From assembly GCA_902728285.1 (NCBI GenBank), contig CACVBU010000784.1, positions 1,742,293 to 1,806,292 of the forward strand: DNA of 64,000 bases, given 5' to 3'. This DNA comes from Clytia hemisphaerica. Its lineage: Eukaryota; Cnidaria; Hydrozoa; Leptothecata; Clytiidae. Of this stretch, positions 2,876 through 58,402 are shown one piece after another. Made by a program: the position numbers and the translations under genes. The first letter of the stretch is position 1, and each line of letters starts with the position of its first letter. A model generated the notes under the pieces. That model searched no databases. It was not told the DNA's origin and saw only the letters and a list, made by a program, of their open reading frames with translations.

Positions 2876-3745
2876 CTTTTTTAACATTAGTTCGGATAGA
2901 ATAAAAACATACCTGATCAACACAACCAAACCTTCTGTCTTGCGTTTACTCTTTCCTTCCCAACAACTTTCGTTTTTGCTTATGTAGGTTTTAAAATACA
3001 CAAGTAATGAACCTCTTATAGCTTTATCTGAATAAATCTGGTTGAAACCTTCTGTCAGGTTTCATTCCGTACGTTTTTTATCCACGTGGTGAACCGGTTT
3101 CCTCGATTTCCCGATAATTAAAAATTGGAACTTTCCCGTGGGCGCGATTGGGCGTACCGCCATCGCAAAATATTTTTCGTGAAAATTTACCGTATTCTAA
3201 CGCTAATTTAATCTAGATAGGAAACAAATATTAAATTTGATCTTTTTTTGTTCGTATTTCTAAATTTCAAGATAAAAGGAACTATCTACGAATTATTTTC
3301 TTTAACGGGCGTTGAATCAACATTGACATATTTAATGATGTCATAATCAATGCCGTGCATATTTTGTCAGCCCCGTGCATATTTTGTCAACATCCTTTTC
3401 ATTGGATAAATACCACTAAAATATACAAGATAAGTAAACATAAATTTATCGCCCGCGAGCACGGCTTAGCTAAGCGCACCTCTCTTATTCATTATCTAAG
3501 AATTGAAGCGGGCAAAGATTACCGCGCGGCTGATAGCGGACGAAGGTTTTTTTGAAGATATTTTCAGTTATAATCCAAGGTAGATCAAACTAAACATAGA
3601 AAGGGGGTATTTTTTAGTGCTCTATACGATGATCGGCATTTTTTTTGAATTCTATGTTTAGATTTTTCTACCCAGCCCCGTTTCTATGTACGCGCGTCCT
3701 GTTGCTAAGACCTTTGCTTTGCTTGAAATGGAAAGCGAAACCAAG
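2876..3745. other. intergenic, no gene seen
   Basis: No gene-like signal. A 17-bp direct repeat (CCGTGCATATTTTGTCA) occurs twice at about 3353-3389. Confidence 0.6.
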
Positions 3746-4129
3746 ATTATTTAGGGGTTACGACACTTCTTGGATCCCCAAAATGGAACACCTTTATGGA
3801 CCCTATTATGGACCCCATTATGGACCCCATTATGGAACACCAAAATATACGGCAGCCGAGCCGATAATTACGGCAGCCGAAACGACGATTTGAATAGCCG
3901 TTTTTCCGATTTTCCGAGGGATAATCCAATACTAGAACAAAAGACGCTAGCAAATAAACTTGTTTCATTTTATCCAGCAAACTTAAAAACGATTCACGTA
4001 AAGTTTGTGCGGGAATTGCGAGAGAAATGAAGTTGAGATAGACTAGCACCAGAAGCTTCGAAGCTTTCAAAATGGAAGCGAAATAATTTGATCAGTGAAA
4101 TGCTTATATTTTTACCACTGATTAAATAT

Positions 4130-5660
4130 GTGACTCCCCAAGCGATTTGAAGTACACAAAAGTCCGATCGGCTAAAGCGAGTAAAAGACCGGTCTCATAG
4201 CGGGCAAAGTGAAATTTCAAGCGGCCTAACATTTTAGAAGATCGGCCATGAAGCGGCCGATGGAATTTTTCCAAGAACGGCCTCAAGGCCTCTATTAGAG
4301 GCTTTTTCTTGATCGAGAGACCGGCTAAGCGGCCAGCGGCCTATTTAGCGGCCAGCGGCCTATTTAGCGGCCAGCGTCCTATTTAGCGGCCAGCGTCCTA
4401 TTTAGCGGCTTTCTTTAGGGATCTTCTCAAAGATATAATCGATTTTCGTTTATGAAGTTTGATTAATGACTCGACTATTTATTCTCCTATATTCAATTAT
4501 TTTTAATCTCCCATATTCGATTATTTAATCCTTGTTGCATTCGATTAATTAATCCTTTTTCGCTTATATCTTAGGGATCTTCTCAAAAATATAACCGAAT
4601 TTCGGTAAAATAGTTTCGGTTAAATTCGGCTGTTTAACCGAATCGCTTCGGTAAAAAGTTTAACTAATTCGGTAAAAGTAATTATTGAATTTGGTTTAAG
4701 CTTGTGGAATTCGGTTAAAGTTTTATCGAATTTCGGCTATAAAAAATTTTACACTGTTTAGAATAATAATAGAGAATTCCACTGACTGAGACGGGGATAT
4801 TTACAAAAGGATCGTTCGTGGTGAGACAGGGTTGTCTTGAAAATTGTTCTTTTAACTACTTACATATTCTGAATTTGTTTATCTAGTATTTTTGAATAGC
4901 GAAATACTTTGCTCTCTTACATTTCTTTTCAAATCATAACAACGAACGAAGCAGAGTGCAGACTTTTACTAAATGTTTGTTTACATTGAGCTCCCTCTGC
5001 GTGCTTTCCTTCCTGTTATCACGTGAACTTTTACCAAAAATAGTGATGAAATACACTCCTTCTGAGTGTGTCTCTTTCTTTTCACGTGATTTTCACTTTT
5101 TCTCTCTCGCATTCTAAAAGTTGCATCAAGCATTCGAAACATCATAGATCAGGAGCTTGTGACAAATCAGGAGCTTATAAGAAAGCAAAGCCTGCAAGAT
5201 GCCCTTTTGGAAGCTTTCCCCCTTCTCTACTGGGGAAGCAATCATTTCATTTTATTTTACAACATTTGATGGCCTCTTAGGTCCTTCTTTATTTCGAGCG
5301 CCCTCCCTTTTATCTTTTTTTTTGTTTTGCCCTTTTTGATTTCTGATAAAATCTTTCTTTGTTCCAAATGTACCTGAAAATGTAAGTAAATTAAAAAACA
5401 AAGCTAAGGGCCACTCATGGCCGCTAAGGGTCGCTAATGGCCGCTATTGGCCGCTATGTCCGATAAGGGCCGCTGTTAGTGGCTTAAAACTTACTATGTG
5501 GCCGCTTCACTGTGGCCGCTTTTAATAAGCGGCCTCGCATCGGCTTTCTTCAATATCCAAGCGGCCTAAAAGGTAAAAAGACCGGTCAAGTAGAGGCCAA
5601 AGAAGATCGGTCTTTTTACCGATCGGACTTTTATGTACTTCAAATCGCTTGGGGAGTCAC
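4130..5660. mobile_element. 1.5-kb TIR element inserted within the 3755-7407 element
   Basis: Near-perfect terminal inverted repeats of about 65 bp begin GTGACTCCCCAAGCGATTTG and reappear reversed at the right end. Both ends are bordered by ATAT, possibly the target duplication or a TIR extension. Subterminal regions are full of GCGGCC/GGCCGC motifs: a 19-bp tandem array near the left and GGCCGCTAA/T units at about 5410-5535 near the right. The middle (about 4600-4745) is rich in TTCGGTTAAA motifs. No coding capacity is visible. Confidence 0.8.
4328..4410. repeat. 19-bp tandem array (AGCGGCCAGCGGCCTATTT)
   Basis: About 4.3 copies in tandem; the last two carry a G to T change (GCGTCC instead of GCGGCC). 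It is subterminal in the 4130-5660 element. Confidence 0.9.
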
Positions 5661-20392: not shown

Positions 20393-35375
<14,983 letters not shown>

Positions 35376-37820: not shown

Positions 37821-40800
37821 TCACTTTCCCTTTTCGCGAAGATAGTCACCTAAAAAGTTCGAAAATTATTTCAAAAAAACTAAAAAAACTTTTTTTAATC
37901 TCGAAATTTCAGAAAATCATCAAAAGTGAATAAATTTTTGTGAGCAGATATTTTCGCGACACAATTTTTTTCAAAAGTAATATTTCAAAAGATATTTCAA
38001 GATTTTTCGATACCTCTTGAACAATATATACTCTCATGCACTCAAAAGGTTTTTTACTGATCCCCCTGTTAGGTTTAGTTAGGGTTAGCGTCTTAAAGTA
38101 CGAAACTATTGCCAAATATACAATAAACTAACTCAACTTACCTAACTTTTCAACAGCTTCTACGACAATGCTCGGGTACATATCAGCCGAGTATAACGCC
38201 AAAATGATCAAAATTGAAGTGCGAATCATTACAAGCCCTTCTTTTCCCTTAAAATAAAGTAAAATCATGTGATAAATTTGAAATTTCTAGGTAAAGATTC
38301 ATCATCTTATTTCCAAACTTTTTGGAAAAGTGTACCAACCAATATATTTTTTCGACCGTAGTCGCGTGGTCAGGCACGTGCCACTTTATTATTTAATTTG
38401 CCATCTTAAACTCGATCCAATCCTTTTTTTACACTCTTTTCTATTGTCTTCAGACGCGAAAAAAAGACTGGGGCGGTTTTAGGGTGGTAAAACGGACAAA
38501 AAATGCCCGCACACACAGCAATAGGTGGCTACGGTCGAAATAGTGTATAGAAGCTAGATTAATAATCACCTTAAAGGAAAAGGAATTTTGGCAGAAAGAG
38601 AATTTTTTTAGAGTTACCCGAGAGATTAGATTACTAATTTTCACCATTTGCTTTATTAAATTTCGGTAAAATTTGATTAAATTTTTTGTATTTCTCAAAT
38701 GTGTAAAGTGCTTGATTAATAAACATAGTTTACTTTTTGATGATTGCCAAGAATTCAAAGTCAGTAGTTACTAAAGAAACCATATCATTTATCAACATTC
38801 TTGACCACGCAAGGGCCTCGCAACCTTTTTATTTTGGAAAACTTATCAATGCGCTCACCTTTTTTCCATAGATAGAATATTTGTCGGCACGAATGACTTT
38901 GTAATTTGTGTCTTTCAAAAGTATTCCTCGGCTATGAGTTTCAGATAAGTTCGAGAATGTATTACTGAGATCTTCCATTTCTTGTATCGAGAGCTATAAA
39001 AAAATTTGAGGGGTAAAAAAGCAAGGATTTATCTTATTACGCTTTGTAAGAATAGTGTACTTTGGATGAGGGTCAAGTATTTTTAAGAAATCGCCAATAA
39101 AATTAAGGGTGAAATAATCTTAACGTATTCTTACATTTTTAGACTTGACTTTTATACAAACACGAGAAATGATCAATTTGAGAGTTTGAGACTTTTGAGT
39201 GCACATTGGGAGCTAAAATATAATGTCTCAAAGTTTCAAATTAAGTCTAACAATTTTCAATTTTCACCCTGATAATCTTATAGAAGATATTCTCATAAAA
39301 AGAAAAGCGTGTACTTCTACTTAGTCTTCCCAGAATTTCACCACTTTTACATGCTGTTAAAAAAGTAAAACCAATCGAAAAAATGCTTTTAGAAAGATTC
39401 ACTGACCTTTCTTAACCAAAATTCTGAACAGAAATGTAATGAACTCGATCAAATTGGGGTTACTTCGATTCATATACTTTTTTTTGGGGGGGGGGTTTAC
39501 GGTTAGTGAAAGAGGGGAATCGGCCCTTTTTCGTTCAAAAATTTCACGGAATTCCGATATTAGACAACAACCTTTTGTATTTCAGAGGAATTCTCAGAGG
39601 CGGAACATTGGTTCCTGTGAGGGAGGAACAGCTCGGTTTCTTTTTTTCTTTTTTTTATCACGTTTTCTTTCTAATTCTACTGTAGCGTCTAAGTATCCCA
39701 CAATACAAGTGAAGACTAAATTAGTCATCTTCTTGGTGCTCGAATCAACATTTTTGACGTTGAAACACTGATACACATTTCGTACACACTAAGTTATAAT
39801 CATTCTGAAAAAACGCATTGATTATCATCAATGAGATAGAAACAAGTACATCGCGATAAGAAAACATACCTGGAATAATTTTGTTTATATTTGAACCAAA
39901 ATAACCAAAAATAATAAAAACATCAAAGTGAAACCAATGTTTAATTTATACAACTTTCGAAACAGACTTTAGTAGCCTTTAGGTCAATGAATATGAGCAG
40001 TTACCACTGTGGGTGTAAGTCAGAGCTACAATAGACTAAATCAACAACATTTAAAACTTTGAACTTTCCTTTGAAAGCCACTGAGAATTTGTAGAAAATT
40101 AAAAAATTGACCAACACCAAAAGTAAATCCCAGGCGCCATTTTGAATTGGATTCTGAGTAAGGAAGTAATCAAGACCTGCTTCTTGAAGGTTAGTTATAA
40201 TAGAGTTATACCTTAAGTGTATATATTTTTGCGTGTACTTAATTTCGCGAGTTTTTTTGGCTAAGTTTCGCAATATTTATTAAGGTTTAAATTTTCGAAA
40301 AAAAATACACGCAAGTACTAGTTTTCTATCTTATACGTTATGTTTTAAGCAAATCAGTCTTTTTTTCCTTTTATAAAAAATCCAACTTTTTGAATCGCAA
40401 AATTTAATACGAAAAATTAAGTAACGATCGCGAAAATTAGTAGTACTCATGAAACACGGTTCTGGGTTAAAATTAACCGCGAAAATATACACTTTAAGGT
40501 AACCCCACACACCTTCCCCTTCAAAAAACAGAAGCAGTCGAAGAGCCTGTGTCCCTTTTCCAGGAGATGTAGCTTTTACTCGACAAATTGGATTTCTAGG
40601 AATACGATTTTTGAAACTTTTGGCCAACAAATTGAACTTTCCAGGAAGACTATGCCTGGGAAATAGATGTTTAAAAATTGCTGACCGCTGCATGCTTTCG
40701 AAAAAAAAATTGGTCAAATAAAAACGGGTCAAATAAAAAAAACGCGACAGAAAAAAAACAATGAAAACAGGTAAAAAAAGAAAATGCGACAATCACTGTA

Positions 40801-41597
40801 TTTTTCATATTCATGGTTACGCCCTATTTTTCATAATAACATCCAAAATTGCCTTCAAGTGTTCTTTTTATGAGTTTTATAAGCCTAAAAATGTTCTTTT
40901 TTATTAACATGTTCTTATTTTCACCATTTGGAGAGTGTTTTTGTCAGTTTTCCTAAGAAATAGGGTGTTTTAGAGTCCAAAAACTCTTAAAATGTTTCTA
41001 ACTTATTCTTAATATTTTAGCCAGTGACGCCTATATTGTGTTCTTATAAAAAATGTGTAACATAAAACACAAGCACAAGCGACAAGTAAAATTTATTTGA
41101 AGTCAAATAAACCCTCAGACGAAAATAAGGTCTTGAATGTGAATCCTGTTTTAAAAGATATCTACGCTACTATGATGGAACTAGTCTATCATATTCAAGA
41201 ATAACAGAATGCCATGGTTAAATGCAACAATGAACTTATCAGTTTATGGCATGGCTAGGCTAGGCTGCTGTCCCCAAGGAATTTTGGAAAATTGAAAACC
41301 CTCCCCTGAAATTGCCAAACTTGTTCAAAATACATTGAAAATATGGTAAAAGTTTGAGCTTTTCTGCCCCTCAGATTTAAATTTGATCGAAATCTGTCCT
41401 GTCCCTCAAAAAAGAGCACTGTCTGGTCTGGAGATGGGACTGTTTTCATTTTCATAATTTTAGCCAGCAGCACTTACTGTAAAGCCATTTGAGTTTGCAC
41501 GCAGTAGGATATCTTTTCTTCGAAAAATTGCACAGCACTCAACATGACCAGTACTAACTAAACATTCTTGAAGAAGAGTTTGAGTTTGATTATTCAT
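37821..41597 (-). CDS. PFN4: profilin-4
   Basis: Four exons on the minus strand: 41478-41597, 38859-38993, 38142-38247, 37821-37849. Phases are 0, 0 and 1, giving 129 aa, the same length as human PFN4. The protein starts MNNQTQTLLQECLVSTGH and shows the family landmarks RGILLKDTNYKVIRAD, YGKKGKEGLVMIRTSILI, SADMYPSIVVEAVEKLGDYL and ends REKGK. PFN4 is a divergent profilin expressed in testis of vertebrates, where acidic-lipid binding rather than classic actin/poly-proline binding has been reported. The N-terminal WQ-type poly-proline aromatic pair of classic profilins is absent here too. It is divergent from, and 5.8 kb from, the FAM228 gene, an arrangement also known in vertebrates. Intron 1 (2.5 kb) contains a MITE and a G-rich element fragment. 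Confidence 0.93.
39484..39620 (+). mobile_element. left-end fragment of the CGG-periodic G-run element family
   Basis: A G-run (39485-39494) followed by GGGGAATCGGCCCTTTTTCG and ACGGAATTCCG matches the left end of the element at 55277-55616. No right end was found. It lies in PFN4 intron 1. Confidence 0.6.
40209..40501. mobile_element. MITE with TACCTTAA(A)GTGTATAT ends, in PFN4 intron 1
   Basis: Inverted ends TACCTTAAGTGTATATATTT and TACCTTAAAGTGTATATTTT followed by CGCG-containing AT-rich sequence; 293 bp, terminal TA. Confidence 0.75.
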
Positions 41598-42127
41598 GCT
41601 ACCTCTCAATTACAAATGGAACAAATCGAAACATCAAAACTCTGAGAAAACGAAAGTGAATCTACCATATTTGTTTGGGTATTCTAAAGACTTGTAATTT
41701 GCTGACCACTAATATTGAATTAAATGTGTCTTAATTTTGCAAAAGATTATTGTCAGATGTTAACTTTTTTATTTCAAGTGGATTAAATTTGATTTAAATT
41801 AAAAAATTTTAATTTTTCTATGAATTTTCACTTTGAATTATTACTTTTAAAGGTAGATTAGTTAGGTTAAATTATCTCACGAAGCACTGATGGAAACGAA
41901 GTAAACAAACAAAATGGTAGCCGTAATAACGTCAAAAGCACATTCGGTCGGTTCGTTCACTGTTCCAATATCAATCACATCATCATTCATGTTTTTACAG
42001 ATGTTTAAATGACTAGAGGAAGATGTTACTTCATACTGGCATCAATATCCCAATTTCCAAAGCTTTTAAGTTATGTATTTCAGAAGTTGGTAAGTAGGTA
42101 GATCCATGATGGCAGTTAAGTATATTT
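41598..42127. other. PFN4 upstream region
   Basis: No further gene; it should contain the PFN4 promoter and 5' leader. No motif was recognised with confidence. Confidence 0.45.
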
Positions 42128-42941
42128 CTATTTCTATTTGGTTGAGTTGCAGGAGGCTTTAGAAGCCTATTCTCGAGACTATAGACGCTTACTAATGAGC
42201 GTCCCGTCAGCACCTTGAACTGACTACCCAATTCCCCTCACATGGTTTGGGTTGACCCGGGCGAAGGAACGTTCACTTGCCAAGAGGGAACTGTAGCCTG
42301 GGAATATCCAAGCGTTAAACTTTTTTCACAGTCTAGTTTATGATATTTCTGCTGCTGGTTTAACGCTTGGTGCAGGTAACTCGCCTGCAGGGACATTTTT
42401 CCCTGCAATGCAGGTTCGGTCTGATTGGCCAGCTTTTGGCGTATTACTTAGCAGTACTTTCGCGTGCATTTTCATAATTTCAATGCGCACGCATAATTTA
42501 TGGAAAAAGCTGACTCTGCAGAAAAAAGGAAAACAAATGAAAATGAAAACATAGATTCATTTCGAAACAAAATGGCTGTTGGCTGGAAGTCTAAATACAT
42601 GTGGCTGATGTTTTCATGTGGTTTTTAGTAGTTTTGAAAGTCTTTAGAGCTTGTGAAAGAGTTTTTATGGTAAGTTGATTATGTGTGTTTGCCTGGGTTT
42701 CCAAAGTTCAGCAAGCCTGTCAACAAGGGTTCACACACAGACTGTTTATAACATTCTGTGTCAGACTAATCTACCTGCACCAAGCTCTATAATTTTAGAA
42801 CTTTGTGAGGTGAGGTATTTTTTGTTTTTTCTAAGATTATGAGCTTGGATTCTCAGGCTAAGGGAACTGCCGTGGGAATCGAACCCTAGGCCGCCTGCAC
42901 AGAATCAGAAGCCAAGGTCGACTACCACTATACTACGGCAC
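42128..42941 (-). mobile_element. tRNA-derived SINE split by a TIR element
   Basis: The SINE body (42128-42293) and its tRNA-like head (42861-42941, with B box GGTTCGATTCCC on the minus strand) match the intact copy at 8195-8450. The two parts are separated by the 567-bp insertion 42294-42860. Confidence 0.88.
42294..42860. mobile_element. 567-bp TIR element with 9-bp target duplication inside the SINE (Mutator-like?)
   Basis: Ends TAGCCTGGGAATATCCAAGC and TAGCCTGAGAATCCAAGC are inverted repeats. The identical 9-mer AGGGAACTG flanks both sides (42285-42293 and 42861-42869). A second inverted repeat lies just inside the left end: AAGCGTTAAAC and GTTTAACGCTT. There is no coding capacity. Confidence 0.88.
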
Positions 42942-43845
42942 CTTTTAGTAAAGTAGAGGGGGGTAGAGCTGATCTGAGTAGGGAGGGCCTAGAAACTTTG
43001 AAAAATGGGTAGGTCGGTCGGTCGGTAGCTAAAATTGGAACCTTTTTTACATTTTCCCAACAAAAACCTTATTTTTGAAATTCCTCTAGCAATTCCAATT
43101 AAGTGCAATCCTGGAATCCATACGCGAATGTAAAGAAATAGCCTAAAGCCTGGATCCTCACAAAGGCACGCGCCGCGATTGTAAGATAACTTCTAGTTTG
43201 AGATCACGGCATGTGCTTAAAGGAATACAGCTGTGAGTCTCTGCTTTATTTTAGGTGGTTAATATTTGTTTTTAAGTACGGGTTACACTGGGACACTTTC
43301 TGTGCGCAAAGTGGATGTTGTTTATAGAAGAATCAAAGCAGTCAGTTAAAAAAGAACCGCAGAGATAGTATTATCATGTGAAAAGGAGGTAATTTTTTTT
43401 TGATTTTTCCGACTCAAAGTGAAACACTTTTTCTAAAAAATTTAGAGTCGGTCGGACGACACGAACCAAGCTATCAATTGGGCCTGGCCTAGTAGTCAGT
43501 TCACCAGTGCACGAACGGCCCCGTAGTGCACGATTGAACGTCTTTGAACTTGAAAAAAACAACCAAAAATAAACTTCTATAGAATTTCCTTTGCGCAGCA
43601 GAATCCTCAAACCATCTCTTGCAATCTCTCCAAAAATTAAAATAAACATAGCACTAGAACAACACCAAACCAATTTTGAACGAGGCCAAGTAAAAAAATC
43701 ACGGAATTCTTGATTTTTTTAAACATGTCTGATCGCGAGAGGAAATGTTTTTTATAAGAAAATTTGCGCAAGAACAGCTCTGAAAATGACTTTCCTCTTT
43801 TAAAAACCTGTTATCTTCCATCACTCATTAATTCAAAATCAATAG

Positions 43846-45078
43846 AAACATATCACCAGTAGTTGATATAAAAAGGTTCCAATCCGCGAACGATCCAAAC
43901 ACCATTATTCAAAATGAAGACATTACAACGTCAAAACATTTGAAAGCGCTGGGCATTCTCAATCAAAAAAGAAGACACTACATTGCCGCACTTTTCGATG
44001 AGCAAACTTGAAAAAGAAAACAAAAAAATGGACGACAAGAAGATATTTACAAAAATAAACATGTTAGTAAAGAGGTTGCGAGATTTGGGTTAGCGAGGCA
44101 AAAATTGCTAAAAAGCTGGTAAAATAGTAATCCTCAAAAATCAAAGTTCCAGCCTCACTGCCAGTGCGCGAACGATCTTTTGAAAGAAAAAATTAGAGCT
44201 CCGCTTGCAGGTAATACTTTAACTCTCTTCCGAGATGATACAGGGGTATTTGAACTTTTCAAAACCACGCGCTTTTTCACTAAAAAAGCGTCTTTTTTAT
44301 AAGAACTTAAGCGTTTTACTAACCTGTTTATTTTTGTAAATATTTTCTTGTCGTTCATTTTTTTGTTTTCTTTTTCAAGTTTTGCTCAACGAAAAGCCCG
44401 GCAATGTAGTGTCTTCTTTTTTAATTGAGATCACCCAGGGGGGGGGGGTCGGTACTAAAATCTAAAACATCATGACATTTAGTGACGTGGTGGTACTGCA
44501 AAAAAGCTCAAAAATAATTTTAGTACCATGTGTACTAAAATACTAAAAAGGGTGGTCCCTTAAAGAAATATTTGAAAAATCTTACAGTAGTATTTTGTTC
44601 TAAAATCAGCCAAAATGGAGCATTTTTTTAACAGTTTTTGATTTTTTTTTCAGGAATTTTCGAAAAAATCTTCAGAAATCTTTCAGAATTTTTTCCAATT
44701 TTTTAAATATTTTTTAAAAATATTTTTATGTACAGTTTAGCACAGTTTAGTAATAAAATTATATTATTTTGCAGATTGGTGCGCTAAATTCGACTAGGTT
44801 TGCAACAATGACCCCATTTTGGTAAATTTAAACCCGTAAAAGGGCAAAAAATGGGTGGTATCTATGTTAAATTGTTCAAAATAAGTACATGTGTACTAAA
44901 ATAACATTTTCGAAAAATAGGTGGTGGTATGCAAGAAATTCTTGAAAATCCTTTTAGTACTCATGTATGTCTGCCATTTTAGTACTGACCCCCTTGGATC
45001 ACCAGCGCTGTCGAATGTTTTGACGTTGCATCGTTCACGGACTGGAACCTTTTTTATATCAACTACTGGTGATATGTT
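43846..45078. mobile_element. foldback element with exon-like arms, interrupted by a second element
   Basis: The left arm (43846 to about 44065) and the right arm (about 44315 to 45078, minus the insert) are inverted copies: GAAACATATCACCAGTAGTT at the outside and GATATTTACAAAAATAAACA at the inside. Both arms encode the same short Lys/Glu-rich string, KKMDDKKIFTKIN on the left (plus) and MNDKKIFTKINR on the right (minus), followed by GTTAGTAA. The right arm is split by 44436-44996. Confidence 0.75.
44436..44996. mobile_element. hAT-like non-autonomous element, CAGGGGG..GTACTAAAAT family (copy 2)
   Basis: Ends CAGGGGGGGGGGTCGGTACT and CAAGGGGGTCAGTACTAAAA, flanked by GATCACC on both sides (44429-44435 and 44997-45003). 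CAGGG ends and a 7-8 bp duplication are hAT-like. The interior shares GACATTTAGTGACGTGGTGGTA with copy 1 at 26344. Confidence 0.82.
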
Positions 45079-45643
45079 TCCGGGGATTGGCGGGTCCAAC
45101 CAAAATATTTCTAGGTTTATGGGTAAGGGCTGTTGAACCCGACTGAGGATGCGGGACATCAAAGGCCGACTATCATTCCTCTCCGATGGGAAATTGGCCC
45201 GCTCCCTTTAGAGCTTTAGTGTGGGCGGCCGCCAACCCGCCATCGGAATATCAGATAAAATCTCACTATTCTGGTCTGTAAAATGCATAATTTAGAGAAA
45301 GAAAAAAAAAAAAACTTTATCTCAGGAACCTTCCTACCAAGTTTCAATGCTGTAGCATTAATAGAAATAAATTTATTAATAATTAATAAAAGTACATGTT
45401 TTTTGAGATAACCCCCGGATTTTTTGTTTTAACCATGTATTTTAATGAGATAAGAAATTTTAATCTCAAGAACGGCTTGACCAATTTTGATCAATGACCC
45501 CTCATTTTTTTTCTTTTTTGAAGCTCTTTCAAATGAGCATTCTCTCAATGGGTAAAAAAGAATTTGAAAAAATAATTGCGGTCCCTATCTAAAGAAACTT
45601 TTTTGGCCATCCGCCAAATTAGATTTCCACCAAAATTTCTTCC

Positions 45644-46226
45644 TTTAATGTAACCTTTTCTCAGCACCCATTCACACTATGTTAGAAAGTTATGCACTGT
45701 TGGAAAGATATTTCCACGGAGAATAATCTAAAGGATGACAGATTTTTGAAAAAAATGGAAAATGATGGAGAAAAATGAAGATTTCTAAGTGTTTTAAAAA
45801 TCATAACATCCAATATTTTTTAGAATATTTGAACCTTGCTGATTTCAAAGCTATGCTGATTTGTGTTCAGATTTTTTATATCTTTCTTGGATAAAAATGA
45901 CCAAAACAGCAAAAACTTCTCAGTGCTATAAATTTTTATCGAAGAAAATTACAAAAAATCTGAACATAATTGAAATCAGCAACGTTCAAATATTCTAAAA
46001 AAATCATGTCACGATTTTTAAAAAAGTAGAATAATATTCATTTTTCATTTTAATTTTAATTTTTCTTTTTCATCTTTCAATTTTTCTAATTTAAAAACTA
46101 TTTTTTTTCATTTTTCAAAAACCTTTTATCCTTTAGGGTATTTTCCTTGGAAATATCTAATTCCAACAGTATATAACTTTCTAATGTAGCGTGAACGGGT
46201 CCTGAGAAAATGTCACAAAACTAAAG
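45644..46226. mobile_element. near-complete foldback (about 580 bp)
   Basis: Almost the whole segment is one imperfect inverted repeat centred near 45935. TTCACACTATGTTAGAAAGT and GGAAAGATATTTCCACGGAG on the left have reversed partners at about 46150-46200, and ATCTGAAC/GTTCAGAT partners lie near the centre. Confidence 0.8.
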
Positions 46227-47442
46227 TGTCCACATACTTTTGAGACGGACCAGGTAAGTTAGTCACACTAGGAAATCAAGCTTAGTAAAACCAACATCAA
46301 TCATCTACATGATGTATTTGCAGCAAAGTGCAACAACCAGGTAAAATTTATCATTTTAATTCCCGCTTTGATTTGTTGATTACTAAATGGGATAAGATTT
46401 TTTGGGGATTTAAATTTCACAGATTTGGGTGTCATCCGCAAAATTAAGTCCCCATGGAAATTTGGAAAGGCCTTATCCGTAAAATATTTCCAATCAAACC
46501 TGAAAAATGTTAAAAAGTACTTTTTAAATGTTTCAACGTTCGTTCTTTACCAGCTTTTCTCCGGATTGGCTCATTGGATTTTTAGATTTTTGGCACAAAG
46601 ATGCAAAATATGACAAAGCCCGAATTTCGAAAAAAAAAAAATTTCAGACACTTGACCCGGAAATGTCCCAGAAAGAGTTTGGATGCAGAAAATGTTTTCA
46701 AACTGGCTTTAAGATTAAAAAAATGCGCAGGAATTCTGCAATTCTGCATGCAGCAGTGGAAATATTTTTTTCGGCTGGAAATTTGCGATTCTGCAGGTGG
46801 AAAAAAATGTAACAACATTGGCTACACGAAAATTATTTTTAGTGCAGAAAAATTATAAAGGTGTAGAGTAAATGCAAAACCTGTGCCCTAATAATGAATT
46901 CTACTGTGGAATGATAGAAAGATATATTGTACTACAGTTTGAATTCAGTCTTGATTAGCTTTAATGTACTTCATAACTATAAAATTGTTTCCTATTTAGA
47001 CATACACATAGTCATTTTATAGTTATTGTATATCATAGATATTCTATGTCGTTTTGTAGGGGAAAGTTATCTCAGTTTTCAATAGGTAGCTTGCTTGCTC
47101 CCAACTGGACTTTTATAGGAATTGGTCTATACATGACCAGGTATCTATAAATTACAAGAAAAGACATCAAACATCAGTGATGAGTGTTTTACATTATTGT
47201 AAAATTAATGATAGAGCTACGAAAAACAAAAAAGAGTACATTTTAAAGGTTTGAGTTTTTGATAACATTCTAATGAAGTTTTTTCCTTTTTTCTTTAATA
47301 CTTCACAAATTCATGGACACTGTTTTGCATAGTCAATTTCTTTAAGTAATTGTTTTAACTTTTAGCACAAAAATAAAAAAGAATTAAAAAAAGCACTACA
47401 CAGCACTTGTGCACCAACAATCACCTTCATACACCTCCCACG
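46227..47442. other. FAM228 upstream region
   Basis: 46390-46500 resembles the left half of the 10868-11227 element (AAATTAAGTCCCCATGG, GGAAATTTGGAAAGGCC). The remaining sequence up to the FAM228 start shows no gene. Confidence 0.5.
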
Positions 47443-50400
47443 ATGTTGGAACAAACCACTGGTCGCACTAAACTATTGACACGTTCGAAAACAGCTGGCA
47501 GTATCAAAGTTCATTCTTCAGATTTCACCAATGAACTTGTCCAAACTGACCCTATTCACAAGGTAAATGAAATGGGCTTTTACATTTTCTTAACCATACA
47601 GGGGTTGGACGAACTGGATACCCTCCTGGAAAAAAGCAAAATTTGCAAAAAGGAAGTTTTAGAATAACTTTAAGCGGAAAAAGAAAGGCGAGAGGAAAAA
47701 CGACAAAATCTTTCTTTAGATCCCCTGGAGATCTTTCAGAATCACTCCCTGTAAAAGTTCGTTCACCCCCTTTTGGATATAAAATGGTATGGCCAATGTA
47801 TTAAGAACGGCCTACGTATCCTTTTTTCATTTATTTACTCTTCTGTCATATAAGATCGAGCTTTAAAAAGTTAGAGCAATGGTAATGTTCTCCGAGTGAG
47901 TGTAGTGCAATGATTCACATAGACCGACTCTACAACTTTACATCCCTATTTCTTACGTAAAGCGACAATCTTTTGTCATTCATAGTACATTTCCAAAGAT
48001 GATTCCAACATTACACCGTTTCAACCAAATTACTCTTGTAGTAATGTGAACCTTCGGCGAAGTAATTCTTCAAATTATATTGGTTGTTGGCTCAGTGAAA
48101 AGTCAATCAGAAACCTCCAGGTATTCTTTCTTTGAGTAATCTGTCACAATAAGCCATTATGGTTTATTAGAGCTAAACGATGATTTAGAGGTGAATTCCA
48201 ATCTTTTCAAAGTAGTTTTCTAACCCCGTATCACTATTCGACTCTTTGTATAAGTTTTTCTTTCTTCTTATCTTTCAGAAAAAGACAGATTTCGAATCGA
48301 AAGAGATGGCCAACATGTATCACAGTTTACTCGATAGCGAAGAAAGACTTCAAAAGGTTAAGATTATGATTTGTAAAACTTACCACCAGATTATCATTCC
48401 TGAGCTGATTTTTTCACTGTTAACATTTTGCTGAAACTTGCTCTCGACTAATTTCAAGTTCGATGAGATGATAAACGACTAGTGATTTTCAAATTTTCTT
48501 CTTCTTCGTAGCAGCGACGATGAGTTGCCAACAAAATATTAGCTTATTTTTAAATTGTAAAGTAGCGCTGACTTTTATTAGCCTTTGTTGCTACCTTTTC
48601 GTCAACATCATTACATTACATTCTTCTTTAGGATTTAGATGATATTATAACATATGATCGAATACGGAAAGATCGCAAATTACAATGGCTCTTACAAAAG
48701 TGGTACGAGAAGACCTACATTCCACTTGATGTAAGAATAACTCTTGGCTTGATTTATTGTTTGTTGTTGTTTTCACGAATATTAGGCGTTTTTACATTCG
48801 CTGCCATCTACAGTTATACTCGTAATAGATGAGTGACCGGCAGTAGTTCAGAGGTCATAATTATGATACTTGTGCCTGCTTTTCTTTTGTATTCTATGCT
48901 TTCCGGAAACTTTGTGAAATTCGGTGAGCAAAATTGTGGCCACAAGGGAGCCTCTGAAAAGGGCACACCAGTAAACATGTTAATAAAAGGATCCAGAAAT
49001 CATAATATTTTTTATATTCCACGCATTCCGTTAGCCATTAGTCTTTTGATACATAATGGCGGTCCTTTAATATGATTATTCCAGAAAGTGAAACGATTTC
49101 TAATTTATTTCTAATTTTTTTTCTCTATAGAATAAGATATGCCAGGAAATGAACGGTTTTCAATGGCAGAAATTCGATCAAGAAAAAAGAAAACAATTCA
49201 TCAAATATCTTAAACATCGAAATGAAAAGGTAACGACATGTCATAAAGTCATGAAATCATGACTTGCTCGTGGAAACTCACAGTGATTCAATATTTATTG
49301 TGTGAGCTGCAAACAAAACTTTAGAAAAATATTTGTACGAAAACACTATTACTACACACTCATTAATTCAAGTTGAGAAATTTAAAGCCAATTGTAAGTA
49401 TTAATTTATAAATCGCATTTCGTGCTTTTCAATAATCTTTATTCCTTTTCCGTACAGGGACATATTTTCCTGGACATATATGAAGAAGCAGAATACGATC
49501 CAATGTCACTCAATAAGAAACGACCTGGACCAATAAAGGTATTCATTAATTTTTGAACAATTCAACGACTTAGACTCGCGTTGCGTTTGGTTTGGTTTTG
49601 TAAGCGTTTAATTGTTGTCTGATTAGTAATTTTTAGTAATTTCGGAGAGGCAGAAATGCCTGCGAAGGGAAATTCATCAAATAAATGTTGTTTAGTGGCA
49701 GATAAGATTGGAAGTTGGTTAAAGTTGGTCATTAAGATAATATAGTGATGGTCTTCGAAAACCCGAAAAATCAACTGTAAAGTGCTATGCATATGTTAGA
49801 TTTTGATTTTTACATTTCAGATATTTTGAGGAAGTTCTTCTTTAAACACTATTCCAGGGGAAACATGTAGTAAATCCATTAGACTTAGTAAGACTTCGAC
49901 CAAGAAAAGAGTGCAACTTTTGGTTTTTATATTATAAAGCGCATTTACGTAAGTAAAAGGATAGAGAGAAATAAAACGAAACTGTGTTTTTCAACACAAG
50001 GCGGTGACGGAGAAATTGGAAGATCCATTACTTCATCAACAATACAAAAGAAACGAAGAAGATCGTGTGGTGCATGCATGCGATAATGGTATCATGCTCA
50101 CGGAGAAACAGATCGAGGAGAAGAGATTACCTAAGAAACCGCTCGTCCCGCTTGGTAGACACGATACGGAGTGCAGTACATGGCTAGATATGAAACTCTA
50201 TGATATTCAAAGTGAAGTTCGACTTCGAAGCCAGTAAGTACAAAGTTCTTATGTCTGATCTGTTTTTTACTCTACAAAATTATCCTCGAATTAATCTAAA
50301 TACGAATTCGTCTTCTATCCCAATTTTTCATTGATGTCCACCCAATAGAACAGTAAGTCCTTATTTAAAAAATATATATACTATTAAATGGGCTATTCCA

Positions 50401-51133
50401 GAAATAGTCTATACCCCCTATGTTGTGGAGGTGATCAGGGTGCTCTGGAAAATAAAAAATCCAGGGTGGTCTGTTTTTTTGGTCAGTAAAATCGGGTTGA
50501 AATCCAGGGTGGTCCAAAGAAATGGGAGAAAAAATCCAAGGGGGTCCTGAAAAATTAGAAAAAATCCAGGGGTCACCTTTTTAAAAAAAGATCTCCTCAA
50601 CATAGGGGGTACAAATTTTTTCTGGAATAGCCCAATGGATGGGACTAAATATTCCACATATTAGATTTGCAGTGAGTTCTTTGTAGATTGTTCAGACCAA
50701 CCCTGATATGAGATGTCCTATGTGTGCTAGACAAGCGTTTTGGATTTTTATTTCCAAAAGAACTATAACCTTGAATATTTTCTGTTTTTATAAATTTCAA
50801 TTTCGTGTTCAATTTCTAATTAGGACTCTTGTGTCATTCTTAGGGACCGAATTTACGGCGTACGAAATATTTCAAATACCTGTTTACACGACATCAGTAT
50901 GGAAGAAAAAACTGCGGACTTCTCACAACAAAATCCGAATACTGGTAAATCCATCTGGAAAAAACGACGACAGTTTACTAGGAGACAAGACACTTTAAAA
51001 TTGGTCTAAAAACTCTTTCTAATTTTTTGGTTACGTTTTCAGCCCATTTAAAGCTGTGCCTGCACAATTTTCTACGATATGTAAGGTAGTTGAAATTGTT
51101 ATCCCTCTGATCATCAAGTTTTACTCAAGGTAG
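47443..51133 (+). CDS. FAM228: FAM228 family protein
   Basis: Seven exons: 47443-47562, 48279-48356, 48632-48730, 49131-49229, 49458-49538, 50001-50233, 51043-51133. The first five junctions are phase 0 and the last is phase 2, giving 266 aa. Recognition rests on the family core GHIFLDIYEEAEYDPMSLNK, then EDPLLHQQYKRNEEDR, ACDNGIMLTEKQIEEKRLP and WLDMKLYDIQSEVRLRS, which align in order and spacing with FAM228A/B. FAM228 proteins are found in ciliated or testis tissues; the molecular function is unknown. The C-terminal exon is the weakest part: it may stop at 51133, or use the GT at 51130 and continue into a hydrophobic exon at about 51525-51640. Its 5' end faces PFN4. Confidence 0.85.
50389..50634. 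mobile_element. MITE with TGGGCTATTCCAGAAA TIR, in the last FAM228 intron
   Basis: About 40-bp inverted ends (TGGGCTATTCCAGAAA, then ACCCCCTATGTTG). The interior has repeats of AAATCCAGGGTGGTC. Confidence 0.85.
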
Positions 51134-52577: not shown

Positions 52578-52821
52578 TAGTGGGTCCACTAAAATTCGGG
52601 TAAACTGGAGAGGCAATCTTAGAAGAATTTGATTTTGGCGCCCGTTATGAAAAATGAAGGGAGCACGAAACTTTTGGAGTATTATCTCTTTTTTAGGCCA
52701 AAAACCATATCTAAGGGGTAACAGGGAACGGAAATTAGTAATCAGAGGCGTCTTTTTGCGGCTTTTGTATTTCGGCACGCCCAAAATAATCAGCTCACCG
52801 CGCTATTGATCTCTAGACCTT

Positions 52822-55276
52822 ATTTTTACATCTTCCCAGGCTCTTGTTTTTGACTCCGGGGTTTTGCCTTCGCTCCATGCCCGTTGCCACCACCAGATAA
52901 CCTTTGTAAAACTTAATATTCAGGTTAAATTCCCTCCATCGTACAAACGAAAAATTTGGGATTTTACTAGGGCTGATGAGAGGGGAATCATGCTTGCTCT
53001 AAATGCCATTGAGTGGGATACTTCTTTTCGAGGTCTAAATGTGGATGAGCGTGTTGCCCTTCTTTCTGAATATATCTTAAACATTTTTTCCAATTTCGTT
53101 CCCAATAAAATAATTACAATCAGGGATAAGGATGCGTTGTGGATGACTCCTGAGCTTAAACAAATGCTCCTCGACAAAGCTAAAATTTATCGCCGGTGGA
53201 AAAAGCGGGGGGATCCCTTGGATAAACAGGCACTCGATGACATCTCCAGAAGATCTAGACTGGCTATCAAAGAAGCCAAGGAAAACTATTTTACTCGTCT
53301 TGGCAATTCTCTTAACGATCCGAACATTGGAAGTGAGAAATACTGGTCTACCCTTAAACAATTCTTAGGTATGCGCAAAACACCAAAAATCCCACCCACA
53401 CGTGATAACAGAGACATCCTCGTATCTGATGTTTCTGAGAAAGCCAGCATCCTTAATTCTTTTTTCGCCGAACAATGTTCTCTTATTGAAACTGGCAGTG
53501 TTCTGCCAGCTGAACAATTCCTTACTGACCTGAGGTTGGAAAACTTAGAATTTGACGAAGATAAGATTGAGTCTTTAATAAAATCTTTAAACATAAACAA
53601 GGCTCATGGATGGGACGATATTTCTACACGTATGGTTAGGATTTGCGGTAAATCTCTAGTCAAACCTTTGTGCAGTATTTTTAATCTTTCAATTCACTTA
53701 GGTATCTTCCCTTCCCAGTGGAAAAAAGGCAATGTTGTTCCTGTTTATAAAAAGGGGGACAAAAGCATTGCTAAAAACTACAGACCAGTGTCTCTTCTTC
53801 CAGTGTTTAGCAAATTATTTGAAAAGTGCATTTATGATGTACTTTACAATTATTTTGCAAGCAACAATCTTTTTACTTCGTGCCAGTCAGGTTTTCGGGA
53901 GGGTGATTCTTGTATCTCTCAGTTGTTGTCCATAACGCATGACATCTTTACAGGGTTTGACACTGATCCACCTTCGGACACGAGGGGAGTGTTTCTTGGT
54001 ATCTCAAAGGCATTTGATCGAGTCTGGCATGAGGGTTTAATTTACAAACTCCAATCCTACAGGGTAACTGGTCCCTTACTTTCCCTTTTGAGAAATTTTC
54101 TATCAGGTAGGTATCAGAGAGTTGTTTTGAATGGGAAAACCTCGGAGTGGAAACAAATTAAGGCAGGAGTTCCTCAAGGCTCAATTCTTGGTCCTTTGTT
54201 TTTTCTAATCTACATCAACGACCTTCCCAACAATCTCGAGACCAAGGCTAAAATCTTCGCTGATGACACGTCTTTATTTTCATTAGTGATTGACCAACTT
54301 TTGAGCAGTGAGGAACTAAACAGAGATCTTGCAAGAATAAGTGAGTGGGCTCGTCAATGGAAGATGTCTTTTAATCCTGATCCCACAAAACAAGCTGTGG
54401 AAGTTTACTTTTCCAAAAGGCTCTTACCAGCTAATGCTCCTGTTTTATATTTCAATAATACTGACATAAGAACTAGTGAATGTCAGAAGCACCTAGGTCT
54501 TATCTTGGATTCCAAACTCTCATTCAGTCACCATTTAGAAGAAAAAATAAAAAAGGCCAACAAAGGTATTGGCCTCATTAACAGACTTCGCAAACATGTA
54601 CCAAGAAAATCTCTGCTTACTTTATACAAATCTTACATTAGACCACATTTAGACTATGGGGATATTATATACGACCATCCTGGAAATTCGACTTTTGTTC
54701 GTAAGCTTGAATCCATCCAATATAATGCCTGCCTTGCTATAACTGGCTGCTTTCGTGGAACATCTCAAGAAAAACTTTATTCTGAACTTGCTCTCGAGAG
54801 TCTTGCTGATCGTCGATTTCGTAGAAGAATGATCTTCTTCTACAAAATTTTAAACAATTTAGCCCCCTCTTATTTACGTAACTACTTACCAGCAAGACTT
54901 GTGGCACCGGGTAATCTAAGAACAAGAAATCCTATTTATCAACTTAATATTCGAACTGAGCGTTTCCGGAATTCTTTTTATCCATACTGCATAACACAGT
55001 GGAATATTCTGGCTGGTCGTATAAGAGATATGCCTTCAGTATCTACCTTCAAAAAAGCAATCCTTGAGTTTCTAAGGCCCAAACCTTCTCCTGTTTTTGG
55101 AGCTCGTGACAACCAGGGTGAGATCCTTCTCAATCGTCTTCGAGTAGGATTTAGTCACCTCAATGAACATAAATTTAGACACGGTTTTCGTGACACCTTA
55201 GATCATTTTTTGCGTGTAGAACAAATTCCATCGAAAACTCTCAACACTTTCTCTTGCACTGCTCTATTTACTTTCA
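52822..55276 (+). pseudogene. LINE ORF2 (endonuclease end, reverse transcriptase), truncated and catalytically altered
   Basis: The frame opens with the last part of the apurinic-like endonuclease (FDSGVLPSLHARCHHQITF). It continues through the RT: NYRPVSLLPVFSKLFEK, then motif A, GVPQGSILGPLFFLIYINDL and the FADD box (54256-54267). The post-RT region LLTLYKSYIRPHLDYGDIIYD follows. Motif A reads FLGISKAFDRVW: the codon at 53998-54000 is GGT where the family has the metal-binding Asp (GAT), so this copy should lack polymerase activity. The reading frame enters the nested element after TALFTF. Downstream at 55617-55805 the rest of the C-terminus is recognisable (LLLYGDPELPF, FILDSERFSGALF). Confidence 0.88.
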
Positions 55277-55616
55277 GGGGGGGTTTCATGGTTGGCGGAG
55301 GAGCGGAATCGGCCCTTTTTTCGGACGGAGTGGCGGAATTTGGCAAAAATTTAGACGGAATTACGGAAATTGGGTTCTCTGACGGAGACGGAAAATTAGA
55401 CAATTTTAGTGCGGAAAAACGGAATCTAGCAAAAAAATTTGCGGAATTTCGGAATTGGTAAAAGATATTCAAAATTTGCGGAATTTTCGACAAAAATATC
55501 GAATTTCAAAGGAATTTTCGGTGACGGAATTTTGGTTCAATTTAAGACGGTTTGACGGAAATTGGAGAAAAAATTGGCGGAATTGCGGAATTGGGTACCC
55601 CCTGAAACCCCCCCTC
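55277..55616. mobile_element. 340-bp CGGAATT-periodic element nested in the LINE
   Basis: Short inverted ends GGGGGGGTTTCATGG and GGGGGGGTTTCAGGG (from the other side) interrupt the LINE frame between ACTTTC and AGGCAAGAC; TCAG repeats at both borders may be the duplication. The interior is a loose repeat of CGGAATT-type units on one strand, starting GGAATCGGCCCTTTTTTCGG. Confidence 0.78.
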
Positions 55617-56065: not shown

Positions 56066-57295
56066 CTTTCAATTTTGCGGGTCTTATCAATATACGTTTA
56101 TAAGAAAAGTTACCATGCCAAAAAAATTACTAATCTTTGTTAAATGTTGTTTAAGTAGCTCTCTCTTTCAAATTTTTACTGTACAGGTCCAGATGTGTCT
56201 TTTCGCTTGCAGTTTTGTGTTTGTTTTTGTTTACAGAAAATGTGAAATGGCTGTTTTTATTATGAAGGTGAGCCGGTTGGCACAGAATGTGTTATTTTAG
56301 CATTATTTGAATTTCGTTGGCATTGGAATGGAGTTTTTTGTCGGTTGAGTAACTCTTAATCCTCATAACGATCTTAAACAGTAGAGAGTTTGTTTGAGCC
56401 TTATTTGTTTTGTTTTTTCAAATCTGGATTTTTTTATATGACATTGTCATTGCTCTCTCTCGTAACAAGGGATCTAAACTATAATATTTCATGCGTGCTA
56501 AGAGTTGACAGTGTATGGGGGTCTCAAGTTTTTGATTTGATTTGATTCCATAAAGATGGTTTGATTGTAAATTGTTTTGATCATCAATCTTTAGTTTGAA
56601 ACTTTTTGAATATTCACTAGTTGGAATCGTCAACAGATTGTGGTTAGGTTTCCCCTTATTTTCTCAACTTTTTTTCATTTCCTTCATTGAAGTTACACGA
56701 AACCGCATAATCTGTTTCTTGGTGAGAATGTATTCCATATTATTTCACTTTTTTTTCACATCAATCTTCAAATCTATAAATAGAGTTTCTTCCACTTCAC
56801 TACGGCATGTCATTCATTTCTTCGTAGATCAAAATAAAGAGAAAACATTTAAAATAATACGGTTTTCTTCAAAGACAAAAAACAGCAGGGTTGAATTTTG
56901 TGGAATTTTAAAACTTTCTTGTCAAAATCTTTTTAACCACACTTCTTGAAGTTTTTCTCGAGAAAGAAGAAGAAAACGTTGGCTGGTGAAAGTATCCAGG
57001 GAAGTTTATTAATTTGGAAAAACAATAGACATATATTCAACGTTCTATCTTTTGCTTGTTTCTTGATAACCTCTTAAATACAACGTTCATAGCAACAGAA
57101 GTTCAAACGACTGGTCTACTTTGATTACTAAGATTCATTAAATAAAGAAAAAATAAACTTATTAAAAACCTAGGGGTGACCTAGAGACTTCATTCTATAC
57201 TAAAAAGTTGAAGAGGAAACAACAAACGTTAATAGTACCAGATCGTTTTCAGGTTAAAGTTACGGACTGTTTGCAAGAACAATATAAATATCACC
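56066..57295. other. GPCR upstream region
   Basis: No gene recognised. The open frame at 56596-56949 is low-complexity and unsupported. The right part should contain the GPCR 5' leader. Confidence 0.45.
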
Positions 57296-58402
57296 ATGGA
57301 TCCTTTGAACAACACTTTCACATTGGATAGCACCATCATCAACATGACGTGCAATCCAAATTCTACACTGAATACTACAAATAATACTATTGACTGCGAA
57401 ACAAAGATTGGATTAAATAGCACCACCATGTCCTGTTTTCACCGTGTAATCATATATCCTTGGTTTATCTTATCTCTTCTTGTTATTGTGGTCAATGTAG
57501 CAGTCTTAATACTCATCAAGGCTCAAAAAAGAAAGCTCCTCAAATGCCCATCCAACATCATCTTAACCAGTCTCGCCGTAAACGATCTATTCAATGGCTT
57601 CTTTAACATGGTTGTTGTTTGTATGAGAATCTACGAAACCAATAATACAAATTGCATGGTGATAAGCTCAAAATTCCTGACATTTTTCTACTATATGGAT
57701 AAAGTGCTACTTCTAAATTCAATCTTCCATCTGGTGCTTTTAGCAACAGAACGTATGATTTCATTTTGCAGTCCACTAAAACATCGAATCATTACCACAA
57801 GTTCCAGAACACTGATCTCTGTGTTTATTGTTTGGATATTAAGCGGCATTTTGGCACCTGTGGAGCATTTTTACGATAATACTTACCCAACTAAAGCGCT
57901 TATCTTTGGTATATTGCTTTTATGTCCAACAGCAATTATTGTTGTTCAATACCTCATCATGCTGGGCATCATCTTCAGGTATATGGCATCTAGACATGAA
58001 ATTGCCAATCAGCTTATTGTGAATCGTCAAAAACCATGTCTCATCTATTTTCTGATGTTCGTATCATTCTTAGCACTTGCTTTGCCAATGGTTGCGTTAG
58101 TGATATATGACTCTTTATTTGGCGATGATTCTTTTATGGGCAACTACTATCAAGTTCTGGAGGCATTGGTCTTAGTTCGTGTTCTACCTAGTCTGTTAAA
58201 CCCATTTATTTACGTGTTCACTAAAGAGGATTTTAGGAAAGAAATTAAGCGTTATACAAAGAGGTACCGTGGGCGTGGCACCGATATGACCACTTTGATA
58301 CGGAAACCGACGACCAATATTACCACAACTACTTCTGATACAGGTGGACGATTGGGTCTCAGTCGCTTGATCTCCAATGATCGTACACGGAAAAGTATTT
58401 AA
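57296..58402 (+). CDS. orphan class A (rhodopsin-like) GPCR
   Basis: Intronless frame of 368 aa with a strong start context (CACCATGG). The extracellular N-terminus (about 50 aa) carries six or more N-glycosylation sequons. Seven hydrophobic segments follow, with N67 in TM1 (IVVNVAVL), D97 in TM2 (SLAVNDL), E152-R153-M154 in place of DRY at the end of TM3, W180 in TM4, P264 in TM6 and NPFIY (302-306) in TM7. C120 sits where the TM3 disulfide cysteine is expected, but the second extracellular loop (about 188-200) has no cysteine, so the usual TM3-ECL2 bridge is missing. TM6 also lacks CWxP. The tail is basic and Ser/Thr-rich. The ligand is unknown; lineage-specific class A receptors of this kind are common in cnidarians. 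Confidence 0.85.
   Translation: MDPLNNTFTLDSTIINMTCNPNSTLNTTNNTIDCETKIGLNSTTMSCFHRVIIYPWFILSLLVIVVNVAVLILIKAQKRKLLKCPSNIILTSLAVNDLFNGFFNMVVVCMRIYETNNTNCMVISSKFLTFFYYMDKVLLLNSIFHLVLLATERMISFCSPLKHRIITTSSRTLISVFIVWILSGILAPVEHFYDNTYPTKALIFGILLLCPTAIIVVQYLIMLGIIFRYMASRHEIANQLIVNRQKPCLIYFLMFVSFLALALPMVALVIYDSLFGDDSFMGNYYQVLEALVLVRVLPSLLNPFIYVFTKEDFRKEIKRYTKRYRGRGTDMTTLIRKPTTNITTTTSDTGGRLGLSRLISNDRTRKSI

What the first reader, a model, noticed from the sequence alone, without database searches (positions are those of the whole stretch)
37821..51133. PFN4 and FAM228 are neighbours here as in vertebrates: possible very old microsynteny
Two small, little-studied gene families lie side by side and divergently transcribed. 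From memory, human PFN4 and FAM228A/B sit together on 2p23.3, PFN4 on the opposite strand to FAM228B. Both are linked to testis or ciliated cells in vertebrates. If this genome is a cnidarian or other early-branching animal, the pairing has survived over half a billion years, suggesting shared regulation rather than chance.
Basis: partly seen in the sequence, partly recalled or inferred. Interest (0 to 1): 0.75.

Follow-up and report, generated by a model that had tools for sequence, protein, structure and literature searches.

The report
Ancient neighbours: PFN4 and FAM228 genes
In a hydrozoan (jellyfish-relative) genome, two genes whose mammalian versions serve sperm and their tails, PFN4 and FAM228, sit side by side as they do in mammals, so the pairing has probably lasted since early animals, although why it lasted is not shown.

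Summary
A four-exon profilin-4 gene (minus strand, 37821-41597; 129 aa) lies head-to-head with a nine-exon FAM228 gene (plus strand, 47443-51009). FAM228 matches mouse FAM228B (PDB 9ijj, sperm central apparatus) at E 5e-16; its algal relative in the PDB is FAP239. The profilin lacks the polyproline-binding aromatic residues, as PFN4 does, and differs from canonical profilins elsewhere in the same genome. Strong FAM228 matches occur at this locus only. No Pfam domain was found in 4.9 of the 5.8 kb between the start codons; 567 bp of the gap are a high-copy repeat. A printed cattle gene list has FAM228A, FAM228B and PFN4 next to each other. The SF3B6 relative and the EH- and SEP-domain genes found lie on other contigs, so I see a shared pair, not a block. 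Inheritance from the cnidarian-bilaterian ancestor is the likeliest reading (about 0.85). Shared regulation is plausible but unshown: no short common promoter, no X-box excess. No third animal genome could be examined. Kind: one more ancient microsyntenic pair.

The parts
41478..41597 (-). PFN4 coding exon 1 (start codon at 41597)
   Evidence: spliced frame gives Pfam Profilin 1.2e-32
38859..38993 (-). PFN4 coding exon 2
   Evidence: tblastn with recalled human PFN4, E 0.001
38142..38247 (-). PFN4 coding exon 3 (holds the MYPS motif)
   Evidence: tblastn E 2e-7 with recalled human PFN4
37821..37849 (-). PFN4 coding exon 4 with stop codon
41598..47442 (.). gap between the two start codons; no Pfam family in six frames of 41650-46551
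42294..42860 (.). dispersed repeat of about 567 bases in the gap, 95-97% identical to at least 40 other places
   Evidence: 40 of 11779 candidates scored
47443..47562 (+). FAM228 putative coding exon 1
   Evidence: outside the part matched to mouse FAM228B
47637..47786 (+). FAM228 putative coding exon 2; its start is uncertain
   Evidence: weak acceptor
48279..48356 (+). FAM228 exon 3 (match to mouse FAM228B begins in it)
48632..48730 (+). FAM228 exon 4
49131..49229 (+). FAM228 exon 5
49458..49538 (+). FAM228 exon 6
49858..49887 (+). FAM228 exon 7
50001..50233 (+). FAM228 exon 8
50844..51009 (+). FAM228 exon 9 with stop codon

Best explanation
This is a head-to-head pair of orthologues of vertebrate PFN4 and FAM228 in a hydrozoan, and the pairing was inherited from the common ancestor of cnidarians and bilaterians. 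FAM228 most likely makes a protein of the outer surface of the C2 microtubule in the central apparatus of motile cilia and sperm flagella (as mouse FAM228B and Chlamydomonas FAP239). PFN4 most likely makes a profilin that no longer binds polyproline and probably binds actin little or not at all, and works while the sperm head and tail are built. Both would be needed in cells that make flagella, chiefly sperm. Shown here: identities, orientation, one strong FAM228 locus, cnidarian source. From papers: functions and places in mouse and alga, gene order in cattle. Inferred: inheritance of the pairing, expression in hydrozoan sperm, any regulatory reason for it.
For: Gene models with GT/AG introns. 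FAM228 to mouse FAM228B, 5.3e-16, and to FAP239 of Chlamydomonas: 9.2e-5 with a two-row profile, 1.9e-5 with the mouse segment alone. Passages place FAM228B and FAP239 on the C2 microtubule. The profilin is 38% identical to recalled human PFN4 and reciprocal best with it in a set of six profilins. It lacks the PFN2a aromatics Trp3, Tyr6, Trp31 and Phe139 but keeps Tyr122, the pattern given for PFN4. A nine-row tree groups the two at 100/100 against the seven other profilins, three of them from this same genome. Canonical profilins beginning MSW lie on contigs C360 (three) and C666 (one, in two pieces), so the window gene is not simply this animal's ordinary profilin. Mitochondrial contig of hydrozoan type. 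Cattle list, apparently in map order: ITSN2, FAM228A, FAM228B, PFN4, TP53I3, SF3B6; one dog interval holds FAM228B and PFN4, listed by alphabet. Chance adjacency in one window is small.
Against: Only one non-mammalian genome was examined, so separate coming-together cannot be excluded. The best SF3B6 match and the EH-domain and SEP-domain genes lie on contigs other than C541, and the ORFs of 95 codons or more in 60 kb on each side, read by eye, showed no other 2p23.3 gene (short exons would be missed), so no larger block backs the pair. With the divergent profilin of C928 kept in, the tree does not resolve PFN4: the pair stands in 36% of 200 bootstrap trees; I dropped that row. Human PFN4 letters are recalled, not fetched. 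The highest single identity of the window profilin is to an Acanthamoeba profilin (39%), though its bit score is lower than that of PFN4.
Confidence: 0.85

Rival explanations
1. Coincidence: the two genes shared an ancient linkage group and became neighbours separately in the hydrozoan and mammalian lines.
For: No third genome tested. No other 2p23.3 gene was found next to the pair. Genome-wide, 4 to 7 such pairs are expected by chance if 3000 to 5000 pairs all stayed in one linkage group each, an upper bound.
Against: For one window the chance is 0.0006 to 0.014 before orientation is counted, with assumed gene numbers. Orientation agrees with the recalled human orientation.
Confidence: 0.12
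2. A finer version of the best explanation: the pairing is inherited and was kept by shared regulation, one enhancer or open-chromatin domain driving both genes in sperm or multiciliated cells.
For: Divergent orientation; both products act in sperm or flagella in mouse. [quoted passage not shown]
Against: 5845 bases between start codons, partly repeat; no excess of X-box-like sites (4 found against 2.2 expected; 3 against 1.65). One of these sites lies 981 bases before the FAM228 start codon (46448-46461); none lies nearer to either start. No expression data.
Confidence: 0.4
3. The other finer version: the pairing is inherited but merely unbroken, by slow rearrangement and for no functional reason.
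For: No positive regulatory evidence.
Against: Other genes in the window (polyubiquitin, CD164-like, receptor, patched-like) are not, as I recall, neighbours of PFN4 in human, so order around the pair has been broken.
Confidence: 0.45
4. Misidentification: the profilin is an ordinary invertebrate profilin, or the second gene belongs to another family.
For: Acanthamoeba profilins score close to human PFN4 (82.8 against 90.1 bits).
Against: Missing polyproline aromatics and canonical paralogues in the same genome; FAM228B is the only PDB match for the second gene at E up to 1.
Confidence: 0.03

Closest known systems
Vertebrate PFN4-FAM228B/A locus (human 2p23.3, cattle chromosome 11)
   Same: The two families are neighbours; the cattle list has FAM228A, FAM228B, PFN4 in that order. 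Divergent orientation in human is recalled.
   Different: One strong FAM228 locus here against two FAM228 genes in cattle; no other 2p23.3 gene seen nearby; best SF3B6 match on another contig.
Mouse FAM228B (PDB 9ijj) and Chlamydomonas FAP239 (PDB 7n61, 7som)
   Same: Sequence relatives over the conserved core.
   Different: 29% identity to the mouse segment; the hydrozoan model has a longer N-terminus of uncertain exon structure.
Mammalian PFN4
   Same: Polyproline aromatics missing except Tyr122; 129 residues and a MYPS motif shared with the recalled human sequence.
   Different: About 38% identity to recalled human PFN4; whether hydrozoan sperm have anything like a manchette or acroplaxome was not looked into, so its role there is open.
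Ancient metazoan microsyntenic gene pairs (for example PDI-RhoGDI, PMC5722932, start of abstract seen in the listing)
   Same: A small group of genes kept adjacent over long spans of animal evolution.
   Different: No paper listed or 101 was seen to describe PFN4-FAM228 as such a pair (one search listed 15 of 2,798; titles, abstract starts and a few passages were seen).

Membership tests
Profilin (Pfam PF00235) | profile match over the whole domain | tested here: met
   1.2e-32, residues 6-128 of 129
PFN4 | loss of the polyproline aromatics, Tyr122 kept | tested here: met
   residues read from the alignment against the description in PMC2694148
PFN4 | closest relative among profilins is vertebrate PFN4, apart from canonical profilins | tested here: met
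   100/100 in a nine-row tree, with recalled human PFN4; unresolved when the long C928 row is kept
PFN4 | does not bind actin or polyproline; binds phosphoinositides | not testable with these tools
   in vitro property in PMC2694148
FAM228 | sequence match to FAM228B over the core | tested here: met
   5.3e-16, query residues 103-293
FAM228 | sits on the C2 microtubule of the central apparatus | not testable with these tools
   mouse and algal structures only
Conserved PFN4-FAM228 microsynteny | adjacent and divergent here | tested here: met
Conserved PFN4-FAM228 microsynteny | adjacent in mammals | tested here: met
   printed cattle gene list, which looks to be in map order; no strands; not from a genome search
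Conserved PFN4-FAM228 microsynteny | divergent in mammals | not tested
   recalled for human only
Conserved PFN4-FAM228 microsynteny | adjacent in intermediate lineages (anthozoans, protostomes, invertebrate deuterostomes) | not testable with these tools
   no other animal genome is held; scans of the viral (PFN4, FAM228) and prokaryote (FAM228) collections found no relative

The most novel reading that the evidence does not exclude
PFN4-FAM228 is a head-to-head module of the flagellated cell, kept together since before cnidarians and bilaterians parted because one regulatory domain drives both. The actin-blind profilin would then be an ancient partner of the flagellum-building programme, older than the mammalian acroplaxome and manchette in which it is now studied.
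Probability: 0.3. Interest if true: 0.65.

Novelty: new member of a known kind. Interest (0 to 1): 0.45.

Why it matters
Fine-scale gene order between cnidarians and mammals is mostly scrambled (general knowledge; the window's other genes fit this), so a surviving neighbour pair points to constraint. If adjacency recurs across animals, the pair gives a direct test of shared control in sperm or multiciliated cells. It also dates PFN4, a profilin reported to bind neither actin nor polyproline in vitro, to before the cnidarian-bilaterian split, and gives an animal outside the bilaterians in which to ask what it did first. The sequence link of FAM228 to the central apparatus in both alga and mouse makes it an axonemal gene, not merely a testis gene.

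Tried and rejected
Looked for relatives of PFN4 and FAM228 in viral contigs and of FAM228 in prokaryote genomes, hoping for stray animal contigs: none. Looked for X-box sites: no excess. Looked for tRNAs and RNA families in the window: none. Looked for a wider 2p23.3 block: WDCP gave nothing, and the tool warned that this does not show absence; 6 EH-domain matches on C26, C397, C197, C154, a class that includes ITSN2 but also others; 1 SEP match on C412, which may be another UBX protein than UBXN2A; SF3B6: 3 matches, the best two on C473, a weak one on C711; long ORFs in 60 kb on each side read by eye. Considered a hidden third gene in the gap: no Pfam family in 41650-46551. A whole-genome search with the window profilin itself did not complete, so the count of profilins rests on the family search: 7 matches, 1 in this gene and 6 on C360 (3), C666 (2) and C928 (1). 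Structure prediction was not run, because sequence matches sufficed.
Full report
What was checked. The finding claims a PFN4 gene and a FAM228 gene side by side and divergent between 37821 and 51133. I rebuilt both genes from splice sites and open frames. The profilin gene has four coding exons on the minus strand (41478-41597, 38859-38993, 38142-38247, 37821-37849). They give one 129-residue protein with GT/AG at all three introns. It matches Pfam Profilin with E 1.2e-32. The second gene has nine putative coding exons on the plus strand, from 47443 to 51009, with GT/AG at all eight introns and 351 residues. The join of exons 1 and 2 is uncertain: that intron has 74 bases and a weak acceptor, so the N-terminus is provisional. 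5845 bases separate the two start codons.

FAM228. The protein has no Pfam match above a curated cut-off (two weak ones below it). Among PDB sequences its only match at E up to 1 is 9ijj_q, 'Protein FAM228B', E 5.3e-16 over residues 103-293. PDB 9ijj is the mouse sperm central apparatus. Passages of that paper (PMC12297659) say that CFAP65 sits on a base made of KIF9, FAM228B, CFAP20 and SPAG16, and that FAM228B has a homologous protein in Chlamydomonas, not named in the passages I saw. A two-row profile of the hydrozoan and mouse proteins finds Chlamydomonas FAP239 (7n61, 7som), E 9.2e-5; the mouse segment alone finds it at 1.9e-5. FAP239 is described as a C2 microtubule outer-surface protein (PMC9113940, one passage). 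So FAM228 is a central-apparatus family shared by alga and mammal, and this gene belongs to it. A search of the whole host genome with the protein gave 10 matches at E up to 1: 8 are exons of this gene and 2 elsewhere are weak (E 0.19 and 0.57).

PFN4. PMC2694148 (abstract and passages) says that PFN4 has lost the polyproline site: of Trp3, Tyr6, Trp31, Tyr133 and Phe139 of PFN2a only the Tyr133 position (Tyr122 in PFN4) is kept. In the alignment the window protein shows the same pattern. An Acanthamoeba profilin reaches 39% identity but a lower score (82.8 against 90.1 bits). The Profilin family search of the host genome gave 7 matches: one in the window gene, three on C360, two on C666 (which I take as pieces of one gene), one on C928. 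The C360 and C666 copies begin MSW and are canonical; the C928 copy is very divergent. In a ten-row tree the C928 copy attracts the window gene and PFN4 is not resolved; the pair stands in 36% of 200 bootstrap trees. Without that row the window gene and human PFN4 form a group at 100/100, and the three C360 profilins fall with human PFN1 at 89/93. I take this as good but not final evidence of orthology, since the human PFN4 letters are recalled.

The organism. The window lies at C541:1742293-1806292 of a 417-Mb assembly of 951 contigs. A 14,551-base contig, C900, carries COX1 with in-frame TGA and other mitochondrial genes. From the translations I read cox2, atp6, cox3, nad2, nad5, nad6, nad3, nad4L, nad1, nad4, cob and cox1 on one strand (gene names are mine); rns lies between nad5 and nad6 and rnl at the far end on the opposite strand. 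Under code 4 two tRNA genes are found, Met and Trp; the two tRNAs over the Rfam cut-off are at the same places; ARAGORN's looser mitochondrial setting listed six. tRNA-Trp follows cox2 and tRNA-Met lies between cox3 and nad2. PMC4655093 (passages) gives these two positions for hydroidolinans outside Aplanulata, and says that cnidarian mtDNA encodes one or two tRNAs (trnM, or trnM and trnW). The animal is therefore a cnidarian and almost certainly a hydrozoan. The paper says trachyline hydrozoans differ mainly by two extra genes; C900 breaks off inside cox1 and at the end of rnl, so a trachyline is not strictly excluded. Hydractinia symbiolongicarpus has an assembly of similar size (406 Mb, PMC11067881, passages), but I do not claim identity.

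Adjacency elsewhere. A table in a cattle study lists, on chromosome 11, ITSN2, FAM228A, FAM228B, PFN4, TP53I3, SF3B6 in what looks like map order (PMC12075139, one passage). A dog study lists FAM228B and PFN4 in one interval, mostly by alphabet (PMC9897549, one passage). No other animal genome is held by the tools, so intermediate lineages are untested.

Is it more than chance? With 22,000 genes, 15 linkage groups and 6 to 10 neighbour pairs assumed, some human-adjacent pair would arise by chance in the window with probability 0.0006-0.0009 under a full shuffle, or 0.008-0.014 if both genes stayed in one linkage group; a matching divergent orientation divides this by about four. Genome-wide, 4 to 7 such pairs could arise by chance under the second model taken to its limit, so one pair in one window is persuasive, not conclusive. 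No larger block backs it. The best SF3B6 match is on C473, EH-domain genes on C26, C397, C197 and C154, a SEP-domain gene on C412. The ORFs of 95 codons or more in 60 kb on each side, read by eye, include METTL18-like and CRCP-like proteins (recalled identities) and transposons, and I recognised none of the 2p23.3 genes; genes of short exons would be missed.

How it may work. The best reading is an inherited pair of two genes used by the same kind of cell. FAM228 would be a fixed part of the central pair on the C2 microtubule. PFN4 would act while the sperm is being built; mice without PFN4 show manchette, acrosome and flagellar defects and reduced motility (PMC9481974, abstract). The start codons are 5.8 kb apart, a 567-bp repeat with at least 40 near-identical places elsewhere sits in between, and X-box-like sites are not in excess (4 against 2.2 expected, 21 of 100 shuffles reaching 4; 3 against 1.65, 18 of 100 reaching 3). 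One of them lies 981 bases before the FAM228 start codon; I give it no weight. Regulation at the level of a common domain would not be seen by these tests.

Known or new. Ancient microsyntenic pairs are a known kind. Searches for papers holding PFN4 with FAM228 (2 papers, the cattle and dog lists), FAM228 with Chlamydomonas (1), FAM228 with cilia (8), profilin-4 and synteny terms (15 of 2,798 listed) and FAM228B with bidirectional (2) showed none that names this pair as conserved; I saw listings, abstract starts and passages only. The library holds only open-licence papers and supplements could not be read, so a supplementary list elsewhere may already include it.

Noticed in passing
window 42294-42860: Dispersed repeat of about 567 bases with at least 40 other places at 95-97% identity (only 40 of 11779 candidates were scored); a young, abundant short element.
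   Followed up: partly
window 43949-44438: Inverted repeats, arms 44004-44071 and 44315-44382 at 96% with 243 bases between: perhaps a foldback-type element inside the gap.
   Followed up: no
window 52810-55458: One open frame of 883 codons with a reverse transcriptase domain (RVT_1 1.7e-29), probably a non-LTR retrotransposon.
   Followed up: no
window 34815-35372: C-terminal exon of a CD164-like sialomucin (Pfam MGC-24 1.3e-10), ending NYSTLH.
   Followed up: no
window 32016-32972: Polyubiquitin gene of four identical repeats, with Asp24 in each.
   Followed up: no
window 57236-58399 and 61532-63998: Rhodopsin-family receptor in one open frame (+) and patched-like sterol-sensing protein sequence (-).
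   Followed up: no
L001, L002, L003 (C360:375495-383673): Three canonical profilins within 8.2 kb, each in a single open frame over the whole domain.
   Followed up: partly
L005 (C928:3086188-3086598): A very divergent profilin with an insertion; its place in the family is unresolved.
   Followed up: partly
C397:506056-508618 and C197:1468349-1470527: EH-domain exons with similar spacing on two contigs, possibly two haplotypes kept in the assembly or a duplicate.
   Followed up: no
L029 and L030 (C900): Hydrozoan-type mitochondrial contig ending inside cox1.
   Followed up: yes
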